From Opitutales bacterium (lineage in GTDB: Bacteria > Verrucomicrobiota > Verrucomicrobiia > Opitutales > Seribacteraceae), in assembly GCA_028042835.1 (NCBI GenBank), contig JAOFOL010000004.1, forward strand, positions 1 to 64,000: 64,000 bases of DNA, given 5' to 3'. The notes below the pieces were generated by a model. The model was given only the letters and a program-made list of their open reading frames with translations, had not been told where the DNA came from and did no database searches. Shown in pieces: positions 51,977 through 53,319 of the stretch (the stretch's first letter is position 1; every line of letters starts with the position of its first letter). A program made the translations under genes and the position numbers.

Positions 51977-52015
51977 ATGTTTTTATTTAGTAAATGCTCT
52001 CCACCACATCCATAG
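51977..52015 (+). CDS. Putative 12-aa leader ORF overlapping the flagellin-like start
   Basis: SD aaggagg at 51963-51969, 7 nt before ATG 51977; MFLFSKCSPPHP*. Confidence 0.3.
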   Translation: MFLFSKCSPPHP

Positions 52016-53319
52016 TTTCACCTACGCTCTCGTACAACACCAACAGAGCAACTGCTAGCTTTCATAATTCTGTCGAAAGGACTTTGGCAAATAATCCATC
52101 CTTGTCCCATGACATAGGAGTTAAGAATGCTGATCAACTTACTTATTCGACAAGAATGAGAAGCGAGAGTAGGCAAAGCATGATTCTCGGTAATAATCTT
52201 CAAGGGGTAATTTCACACAGCCAAACACAAGAATCCTTTTTAAAACTTGCAATCAGAAAGTACGATAGAATGTCAGTGCTGGCAGTAGAATCACAAAATA
52301 CCATGCTGAGCAATGCGGAGCGGGTGAATTTGCAAACTGAATTTGACCAGCACCGTGCGGATATTTTTCAAATGCGTAATGGTTCCTTTAACGGAAATAA
52401 TTTATTTAGGGGTAAACTGTATGAAATTATTCAGTTCGATGATAACAACGATGGCAACCCTGACGCAATTGATTGGGAAAGGGCATACAACGATGCCAAT
52501 AATCGAGACAATGCTGATCCAAATAATACTCACTACATGGCAACCATTACCTCTTATACTGAACAAATTGAGATTAAGGGACAGATAGGAAAAGCGGACA
52601 CAAATGCATGGCTCGGTGCCAGTGATAACAATATCGATAATGGAATTGATGATGGAGATCCGGGTTTTGAGGGGAATTGGCGCTGGGTGACTGGCCCAGA
52701 AAAAGGTCAACAATTCTGGCAAGGAACTTTTGGTGCTCCGCAACCATCAAATTTACAGAATGCTTTCAATAATTGGGGATTAGGTGAGCCTAATGACGCA
52801 GGAGGAGAGGATTATCTTCAGATTAGTGTAGCAAGCGAACCCCTGGGATCATGGAACGATTTGCCGAATACGGATTCCGCTCATCCTAATTATCAACCGT
52901 TGGCCTATGTTCTTGAAACTGACCAAGGGCAACTAGAATCAAATTTGACTGTAGGTTCGTTATCGTTAAAAAATATCAGTCTTCCAACCTTTGTTGATTC
53001 AAGCGTGATTAGTATTGATAGTATAGGAAATGCTGAATCCGCAAGCTCTGACATTCAATTAACCTTAAATAAATTACATAGTCAGATGGCAAATGTCGGT
53101 TCCAATCTTAGCCAAGCTGAAATGTCCATGGATAGAATGATGCAGAGAGTGATGACTGCCGAATCTTCGTTTTCTCGAATGTCAGATAACAATATAGCGA
53201 ACGACCTATCAGACATAGCTAAAACCTCGATCCGATCCGAGTCTAGTTCTGCCATTCTTGCTCAAGCGAAGGGTATAACCAGCCAGCTCACTGAAACATT
53301 ATTGCAGAATTTTCAATAA
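51994..53319 (+). CDS. Flagellin-like protein with inserted C-type lectin domain
   Basis: N- and C-terminal flagellin-like helices (LQTEFDQHRADIFQMRNGSFNGNNLF; SSDIQLTLNKLHSQMANVGSNLSQAEMSMDRMMQRVMTAESSFSRMSDNNIANDLSDIAKTSIRSESSSAILAQAKG) flank a CTLD (WERAYNDANN...HYMATITSYTEQ...AWLGASDN...GNWRWVTGPE...FNNWGLGEPNDAGGEDYLQI...WNDLP...YVLETD). Confidence 0.82.
   Translation: MLSTTSIVSPTLSYNTNRATASFHNSVERTLANNPSLSHDIGVKNADQLTYSTRMRSESRQSMILGNNLQGVISHSQTQESFLKLAIRKYDRMSVLAVESQNTMLSNAERVNLQTEFDQHRADIFQMRNGSFNGNNLFRGKLYEIIQFDDNNDGNPDAIDWERAYNDANNRDNADPNNTHYMATITSYTEQIEIKGQIGKADTNAWLGASDNNIDNGIDDGDPGFEGNWRWVTGPEKGQQFWQGTFGAPQPSNLQNAFNNWGLGEPNDAGGEDYLQISVASEPLGSWNDLPNTDSAHPNYQPLAYVLETDQGQLESNLTVGSLSLKNISLPTFVDSSVISIDSIGNAESASSDIQLTLNKLHSQMANVGSNLSQAEMSMDRMMQRVMTAESSFSRMSDNNIANDLSDIAKTSIRSESSSAILAQAKGITSQLTETLLQNFQ

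What the first reader, a model, noticed from the sequence alone, without database searches (positions are those of the whole stretch)
51994..53319. Flagellin-like protein carrying an inserted C-type lectin domain with EPN and WND motifs
Seen in sequence: flagellin-like N- and C-terminal helical segments (about aa 15-140 and 350-441) flank about 150 aa with C-type lectin hallmarks: WERAYNDANN...HYMATITS, AWLGASDN, GNWRWVTGPE, NNWGLGEPN (EPN at 52786-52794) and WND (52852-52860). Established knowledge: flagellin hypervariable regions can hold inserted domains (flagellinolysins carry a protease). In C-type lectins WND helps form Ca site 2, and EPN is linked to mannose/GlcNAc/fucose-type binding. 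Inference: the filament, or a secreted flagellin-like protein, could display a polyvalent lectin for glycan surfaces or polysaccharide particles. No other flagellar gene is visible in this window.
Basis: partly seen in the sequence, partly recalled or inferred. Interest (0 to 1): 0.87.

Follow-up and report, generated by a model that had tools for sequence, protein, structure and literature searches.

The report
Flagellin with a built-in lectin
A marine Opitutia bacterium encodes a flagellin-family protein with a sugar-binding-type (C-type lectin) domain spliced into its surface-exposed middle, one of two independently evolved groups of such proteins found here, which suggests that some bacterial flagella may double as sticky, sugar-recognising fibres.

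Summary
ORF 51994-53319 (441 aa) matches Flagellin_N (35 bits, over cut-off) and, below cut-off, Flagellin_C. The middle ~172 aa is a genuine C-type lectin-like domain (CTLD). Single-sequence Pfam misses it (12 bits), but a profile of it with 13 bacterial relatives hits MINCLE (4.9e-14) and MBP-A (1.3e-10), and AlphaFold models match flagellins outside and DC-SIGN/CEL-I inside. The five ligands of the sugar-binding Ca site are conserved in 13-14 of 14 non-redundant homologues; the exception carries the galactose-type QPD.

It is not a one-off. Full-length lectin-flagellins occur in 18 of 44 genomes of the family, in two backbones only 22-27% identical, and in no other sampled Verrucomicrobiota. 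A second family (about 98 proteins, Alphaproteobacteria) carries the CTLD at a different flagellin position, so the fusion arose independently. The genome has a flagellar operon (FlhA, FlgK/FlgL, rod/ring genes, MotA/B) and other flagellins.

Most likely mechanism, inferred and not shown: flagellar export, co-assembly as a minor filament subunit, Ca-dependent glycan binding. The kind (domain in the flagellin hypervariable region) is known from flagellinolysins; a lectin version was not found in the literature searched. Binding and filament incorporation are untested.

The parts
51994..53319 (+). lectin-flagellin gene (441 aa)
51994..52407 (+). flagellin N-terminal part (residues 1-138): D0/ND1 helices H5-33, H46-99, H107-128
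   Evidence: Pfam Flagellin_N 35.4 bits; model; Foldseek flagellins
52408..52929 (+). inserted C-type lectin-like domain (residues about 139-312)
   Evidence: profile vs PDB; model pLDDT 88.6, pTM 0.86; Foldseek CTLDs
52786..52794 (+). EPN motif (E265, P266, N267), Ca-site-2 ligands and predicted sugar-specificity motif
   Evidence: aligned to MINCLE EPN
52807..52809 (+). E272, equivalent of the third Ca-site-2 ligand (MBP-A E193 from general knowledge)
   Evidence: invariant in 14/14 non-redundant flagellin-CTLDs
52852..52860 (+). WND motif (W287, N288, D289), Ca-site-2 ligands
   Evidence: invariant in 14/14; coordinates
52930..53316 (+). flagellin C-terminal part: linker plus long CD1/CD0 helix H344-440
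   Evidence: Flagellin_C 16.9 bits (below cut-off); model
51963..51969 (+). AAGGAGG Shine-Dalgarno-like site, 24 nt before the flagellin ATG and 7 nt before a 12-codon leader ORF (51977-52015)

Best explanation
The gene encodes a flagellin whose hypervariable (D2/D3) slot holds a Cys-poor bacterial C-type lectin domain. Shown here: flagellin-type ends, a CTLD fold (by prediction), a complete set of Ca-site-2 residues, purifying selection in relatives, and flagellar export and motor genes in the same genome. Inferred: the protein is secreted through the flagellar type III apparatus, co-assembles as a minor subunit in a filament built mostly of the genome's plain flagellins, and points its CTLD outward. 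There, Ca2+ held by E265/N267/E272/N288/D289 would bind vicinal equatorial hydroxyls of mannose-, GlcNAc- or fucose-type glycans (EPN class). The filament would thus act as a multivalent adhesive fibre for algal polysaccharide particles or glycosylated cell surfaces.
For: Flagellin: Pfam Flagellin_N over cut-off, NCBIfam flagellins, PDB flagellins 8.6e-13, D0/D1-like helices in the model, Foldseek flagellins. CTLD: profile hits MINCLE 4.9e-14 and MBP-A 1.3e-10; CTLD model pLDDT 88.6 matching CEL-I EPNH, CD23, DC-SIGN, langerin and fucose-bound collectin-11. Ca ligands: 13, 13, 14, 14, 14 of 14 non-redundant lectin-flagellins and 13/13 non-flagellin relatives. Selection: dN/dS 0.05-0.14 over the CTLD where measurable. 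Apparatus: FliW, FlgL, FlgK, FlgI/H/A/G/F and MotA/B on C15, FlhA 6e-239, further flagellins on C73, C95, C72. Recurrence: 18 of 44 family genomes; independent insertion in about 98 alphaproteobacterial proteins at another site. Precedent for domain-bearing filaments: flagellinolysin is incorporated and active in filaments (PMC5595980). Flagellar proteins of marine MB11C04 Verrucomicrobiota, possibly the same group, were abundant in bloom metaproteomes (PMC8857213).
Against: No export, assembly or binding data exist. D0 is divergent: the usual 'LSSGkri..DDAAG' stretch is degenerate, Flagellin_C is below cut-off, and residues 1-8 and 36-43 are modelled at pLDDT <50. FliD was not found, though the genome is only 63% complete. 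No sigma-28 consensus upstream and a poorly spaced Shine-Dalgarno. The gene stands alone, away from the flagellar operon. EPN/WND predict specificity only loosely.
Confidence: 0.6

Rival explanations
1. It is a flagellin-family protein that is not a filament subunit: a secreted or cell-surface flagellin homologue, like the alginate-binding P5 of Sphingomonas sp. A1, or a junction/cap-like protein, with the CTLD acting as surface polysaccharide receptor.
For: Top Foldseek hit is the Sphingomonas cell-surface flagellin 3k8v; P5 is described as an alginate receptor (PMC8286568). D0 is divergent, Flagellin_C is below cut-off, and the gene is isolated.
Against: 3k8v is also simply a well-resolved flagellin fold. 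NCBIfam scores flagellin models and the FlgL equivalog alike, all far below their cut-offs. The C-terminal segment (SSSAILAQAK..LTETLL) keeps a flagellin-like end (my reading). The main-clade relatives have canonical D0 motifs (LSSGKRI..DDAG).
Confidence: 0.22
2. The insert has a CTLD fold but does not bind sugar; it mediates protein-protein contacts or only thickens the filament surface.
For: Many CTLDs bind proteins or ice rather than sugars (CD23 and antifreeze proteins are among the fold hits). The loop before EPN (251-257) is modelled with low confidence in the full-length model.
Against: All five Ca-site-2 residues are kept across two backbones and against 41-55% CTLD identity. The one departure is EPN to QPD, a switch known to change sugar class rather than abolish binding. 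A variant that lost EPN (L052) also carries a ~400 aa disruption.
Confidence: 0.13
3. It is a hypervariable receptor diversified by a retroelement (DGR), since DGR targets are often C-type-lectin folds.
For: The genome has one reverse transcriptase on C34, beside repeats that look like a DGR with an FGE-type CLec target.
Against: That RT is on another contig with its own nearby target-like ORF. The repeat (GSWNNDGTNLRSAKRNNNTPSNRNNNLGFRVGF) does not resemble the window CTLD. The insert is mid-gene, and its sequence is conserved, not hypervariable.
Confidence: 0.02
4. It is a decaying flagellin paralogue or an assembly artefact.
For: Broken lectin-flagellins and decayed flagellin ORFs exist in relatives and on C73.
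Against: Intact 92% and 73% identical homologues in independent metagenomic data, clusters of 19-39 sequences; low dN/dS in relatives; gene inside an 80.8 kb contig.
Confidence: 0.03

Closest known systems
Flagellinolysins (proteolytic flagellins; Eckhard et al. 2017, PMC5595980)
   Same: Functional domain inserted in the flagellin hypervariable region, with insert-less close relatives and several lineages carrying it.
   Different: Insert is a CTLD, not an M9 gluzincin peptidase; predicted binding, not catalysis. CTLD is not among the ten most frequent flagellin inserts listed in Table 1 of that paper; its supplementary list of 61 domains could not be read here.
Sphingomonas sp. A1 cell-surface flagellin P5 (PDB 3k8v/2zbi)
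   Same: Flagellin homologue, top fold hit; described as polysaccharide (alginate) binding (PMC8286568).
   Different: P5 is not known to carry a CTLD; here a dedicated lectin domain is inserted.
Metazoan C-type lectin CRDs (MINCLE, MBP-A, DC-SIGN, CEL-I)
   Same: CTLD fold, WIG/WND/EPN motifs and the five Ca-site-2 positions.
   Different: Bacterial, lacks the canonical disulfides (EDY in place of EDC), embedded in a flagellin.
Bacterial CTLDs of Bacteroidota (mostly T9SS/Ig-like surface proteins) and cyanobacteria
   Same: Closest non-flagellin CTLD sequences, 41-50% identical, same EPN..ED..WND pattern.
   Different: Found in other surface proteins, not in flagellins.

Membership tests
Bacterial flagellin (FliC family) | Flagellin_N profile match over curated cut-off | tested here: met
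   35.4 bits vs 26.6
Bacterial flagellin (FliC family) | Flagellin_C profile match over curated cut-off | tested here: inconclusive
   16.9 bits vs 23 for this protein; all 9 aligned homologues match at E<=0.1, best 8.7e-13
Bacterial flagellin (FliC family) | D0/D1 coiled-coil helices formed by both termini | tested here: met
   model helices 5-33, 46-99, 107-128, 344-440; Foldseek flagellins 1.9e-7
Bacterial flagellin (FliC family) | Export and incorporation into a filament | not testable with these tools
   flagellar export and motor genes present in genome
C-type lectin-like domain | Pfam Lectin_C over cut-off | tested here: not met
   12 bits vs 22.6 for this sequence; met by alphaproteobacterial counterparts
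C-type lectin-like domain | Homology and fold of CTLDs (profile vs PDB, structure) | tested here: met
   MINCLE 4.9e-14; Foldseek CEL-I, CD23, DC-SIGN
Ca-dependent sugar-binding CTLD (EPN type) | Five Ca-site-2 residues E,N,E,N,D | tested here: met
   E265, N267, E272, N288, D289
Ca-dependent sugar-binding CTLD (EPN type) | Measured Ca-dependent glycan binding | not testable with these tools
   needs recombinant protein
Flagellinolysin | HExxH gluzincin peptidase insert | tested here: not met
   no HExxH in the protein and no peptidase profile
DGR variable protein | Adjacent RT and template repeat matching the gene | tested here: not met
   only RT is on contig C34; its repeat does not resemble the CTLD

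The most novel reading that the evidence does not exclude
Flagellins in marine Opitutia, and independently in Alphaproteobacteria, are a modular display scaffold. Lectin (CTLD), peptidase (M9-like, active and apparently inactive copies) and other cassettes are exchanged in the surface slot, with a carbohydrate-binding module also in FlgL, so that the flagellum works as a polyvalent Ca-dependent glycan-capturing organelle whose sugar class can switch (EPN to QPD).
Probability: 0.4. Interest if true: 0.87.

Novelty: new variant of a known kind. Interest (0 to 1): 0.72.

Why it matters
If the filament carries many copies of a Ca-dependent lectin, the flagellum of these marine bacteria is at once propeller and specific adhesin. 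That would link motility directly to recognition of algal polysaccharides or prey/host glycans. Two independent origins at different flagellin positions argue for a selective advantage. It gives a directly testable case in which flagellin hypervariable-domain diversity has a predictable ligand chemistry, and natural templates for lectin-bearing protein fibres.

Tried and rejected
Pfam Lectin_C on the insert alone: no significant hit, so profile and fold routes were used. My first CTLD tree was spoilt by untrimmed flagellin C-termini and was redone. DGR diversification: considered and rejected. Sigma-28 promoter: no E. coli-type consensus. FliD: not found, inconclusive at 63% completeness. My own flagellin profile against the non-Opitutia loci found nothing, although L078 and L100 are flagellin-like by Pfam; that home-made profile was too narrow. 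Literature searches for lectin-bearing flagellins returned no relevant paper. A search around the L078 genome was not possible.

Full report
WHAT IS THERE. The ORF at 51994-53319 (+) encodes 441 residues with an intact frame. The cited motifs lie at the cited bases: EPN 52786-52794 and WND 52852-52860. The N-terminal third scores 35.4 bits with Pfam Flagellin_N (cut-off 26.6) and the C-terminal part 16.9 bits with Flagellin_C (cut-off 23, so below). NCBIfam flagellin models match both ends, all below their own cut-offs. Solved flagellins match with E 8.6e-13.

THE INSERT IS A C-TYPE LECTIN DOMAIN. Pfam Lectin_C alone does not recognise it (12 bits, E 0.36), so the motif reading had to be tested otherwise. 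Homologous domains in non-flagellin bacterial proteins, some of which carry PF00059, are 41-50% identical. A profile of the window insert with 13 such non-flagellin CTLDs finds MINCLE at 4.9e-14, DC-SIGNR at 7.5e-10 and MBP-A at 1.3e-10 among solved structures, aligning EPN with EPN and WND with WND. AlphaFold2 with 39 aligned sequences gives helices 5-33, 46-99, 107-128 and 344-440 (flagellin D0/D1) around a CTLD core (mean pLDDT 78, pTM 0.65). Foldseek returns flagellins (3k8v 1.9e-7) for the outside and DC-SIGN CRDs (TM 0.76 by target) for the inside. Modelled alone, the domain reaches pLDDT 88.6 and pTM 0.86, and the 50 listed hits are CTLD-fold proteins, including EPN-mutant CEL-I, DC-SIGN, langerin and fucose-bound collectin-11.

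THE SUGAR/CALCIUM SITE. The five Ca-site-2 positions known from mannose-binding protein (general knowledge) are E265, N267, E272, N288 and D289. In 14 non-redundant flagellin-CTLDs they are conserved 13, 13, 14, 14 and 14 times; in 13 non-flagellin relatives always. The one exception, L044, has QPD in place of EPN. In animal lectins that exchange goes with galactose- instead of mannose-type binding (established knowledge). Conservation of the ligands supports, but does not show, calcium and sugar binding.

HOW COMMON IT IS. Close homologues (92% and 73%, full length) come from independent metagenomic data. In the window's own family, full-length lectin-flagellins are in 18 of 44 genomes: 12 of 29 in the genus, 4 of 5 and 2 of 2 in two sister genera, 0 of 8 in a third. 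Three more genomes hold broken or rearranged versions (my count). In a sample of 394 Verrucomicrobiota genomes from 201 genera, no genome other than the window's own had a match extending across the insert. Named carriers are marine Opitutia/Verrucomicrobia MAGs and single-cell genomes.

BACKBONE AND CASSETTE HAVE DIFFERENT HISTORIES. On a tree of flagellin ends only, the window clade is sister to insert-less flagellins (P0012/P0013, 50% identical; 99/96 support). It is separated by a long, fully supported branch from the main group of lectin-flagellins, and well-supported branches force at least three changes of the CTLD state. Backbone identity between the two groups is 22-27%, while their CTLDs are 41-55% identical and group together against other bacterial CTLDs (99/95), together with one Opitutia non-flagellin CTLD. 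Both sit at the same point, directly after the FNGxxLFRGKxY segment. The simplest reading is a cassette moved between flagellin genes (inference); multiple losses are not excluded. Pairs of relatives show dN/dS 0.05-0.14 over the CTLD where synonymous change is not saturated.

AN INDEPENDENT SECOND ORIGIN. The named-genome scan also returned two alphaproteobacterial MAGs, one labelled Micavibrionaceae. In L078, Lectin_C is over its cut-off (29.1 bits) and Flagellin_N just under (23.6); close relatives pass both (P0162, P0209). A database search lists 98 such proteins (P0144-P0241, 43-100% identical), most annotated with both domains. There the CTLD interrupts the region covered by Flagellin_N, after profile position ~92, and is followed by a YRGxxLL segment that I read as the counterpart of FNGxxLL. 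That is a different site from the Opitutia insertion. Relatives of that family carry a concanavalin-like or other domain instead.

THE FLAGELLUM OF THIS ORGANISM. Contig C15 holds FliW, FlgL, FlgK, FlgI, FlgH, FlgA, FlgG, FlgF, MotB and MotA (read from sequence; FlgK and FlgL by profile) and FlhA (6e-239). Further flagellins lie on C73, C95 and C72. FliD was not found, but the assembly is 63% complete. FlgL (1092 aa) itself contains a carbohydrate-binding module CBM_5_12 over cut-off. Relatives carry M9-type peptidase flagellins. So several members of this lineage decorate flagellar proteins with binding or degrading domains. PMC8857213 reports that marine Verrucomicrobiota of genus MB11C04 encode flagella that were abundant in spring-bloom metaproteomes. 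That the window belongs to that group is only a guess from habitat, G+C (44%) and flagella.

MECHANISM. Shown: architecture, fold by prediction, conserved Ca ligands, selection in relatives, flagellar apparatus. Inferred: export through the flagellar type III system, co-assembly as a minor subunit, outward display, Ca-dependent binding of mannose/GlcNAc/fucose-type glycans, and use in attachment to polysaccharide particles or cells. The main rival is a surface-located flagellin homologue that is not in the filament, as for the alginate-binding P5 protein of Sphingomonas (PMC8286568; its structure is the top fold hit). The divergent D0 of the window copy keeps that rival alive.

NOVELTY. Domain insertion in the flagellin hypervariable region is a known kind: PMC5595980 reported 61 domain types and proved peptidase activity on filaments. 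Its ten commonest inserts include no lectin, its text does not contain the word 'lectin', and its supplementary list could not be read here. My searches of an open-access library found no report of a C-type-lectin flagellin; subscription papers are not covered. I therefore file it as a new variant of a known kind.

Noticed in passing
L118:1990-3711 and 3800-5521; L119:262-2037 and 2097-3872 (relatives G024, G008): Tandem flagellinolysin-like pair: first gene has an M9-type HExxH peptidase insert, the second a related insert that has lost HExxH (apparently inactive partner).
   Followed up: partly
L034, L120, L121, L123, L125; own genome L012:4296-5801 (-): Tandem flagellin-family genes with another recurring cassette (VNGG..GERYxxKQG..IFDTG..FDFDxFIxxFxPGxxTTFxFVP) in the same slot; no Pfam match in those tested, function unknown.
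   Followed up: partly
L011:6407-9685 (-), own genome contig C15: FlgL of 1092 aa (about three times normal) contains a CBM_5_12 carbohydrate-binding module over cut-off; FlgK is also unusually long (1096 aa).
   Followed up: partly
L044:2810-4102 (+): One lectin-flagellin has QPD (galactose-type) instead of EPN; a tandem paralogue in the same genome (L022:162-1430) keeps EPN.
   Followed up: partly
L052:447-3008 (+): 854-aa flagellin whose CTLD is interrupted by about 400 aa and has lost EPN; a third backbone type.
   Followed up: partly
L039 vs L042: In this pair the CTLD is more diverged (dN 0.25) than the flagellin backbone (dN 0.08), as if the cassette had been exchanged.
   Followed up: no
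P0243, P0244 (alphaproteobacterial relatives): Flagellins with Laminin_G_3 (concanavalin A-like) or glycine-rich domain inserts.
   Followed up: no
L127 (own genome C34:68510-69043 region): Reverse transcriptase next to FGE-type CLec ORFs with repeat-like ends: looks like a diversity-generating retroelement.
   Followed up: partly
window 53486-53740 (-) and 53792-54214 (-): Full-length SufE (140 aa) followed by a shorter partial SufE-like copy (84 aa), directly downstream of the lectin-flagellin.
   Followed up: partly
window 51963-52015 (+): Strong Shine-Dalgarno serves a 12-codon leader ORF (MFLFSKCSPPHP) overlapping the flagellin start; the flagellin ATG is 24 nt from it. Possible translational coupling.
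   Followed up: no
L009:4284-5549 (-); L122:2037-2945 (-): Highly diverged, apparently decayed flagellin-like ORFs next to intact flagellin genes.
   Followed up: no
L013/L008 (own genome C1:71879-72091): A 4363-codon open frame carrying a Lectin_C match over cut-off (26 bits), the only other CTLD found in this genome.
   Followed up: no
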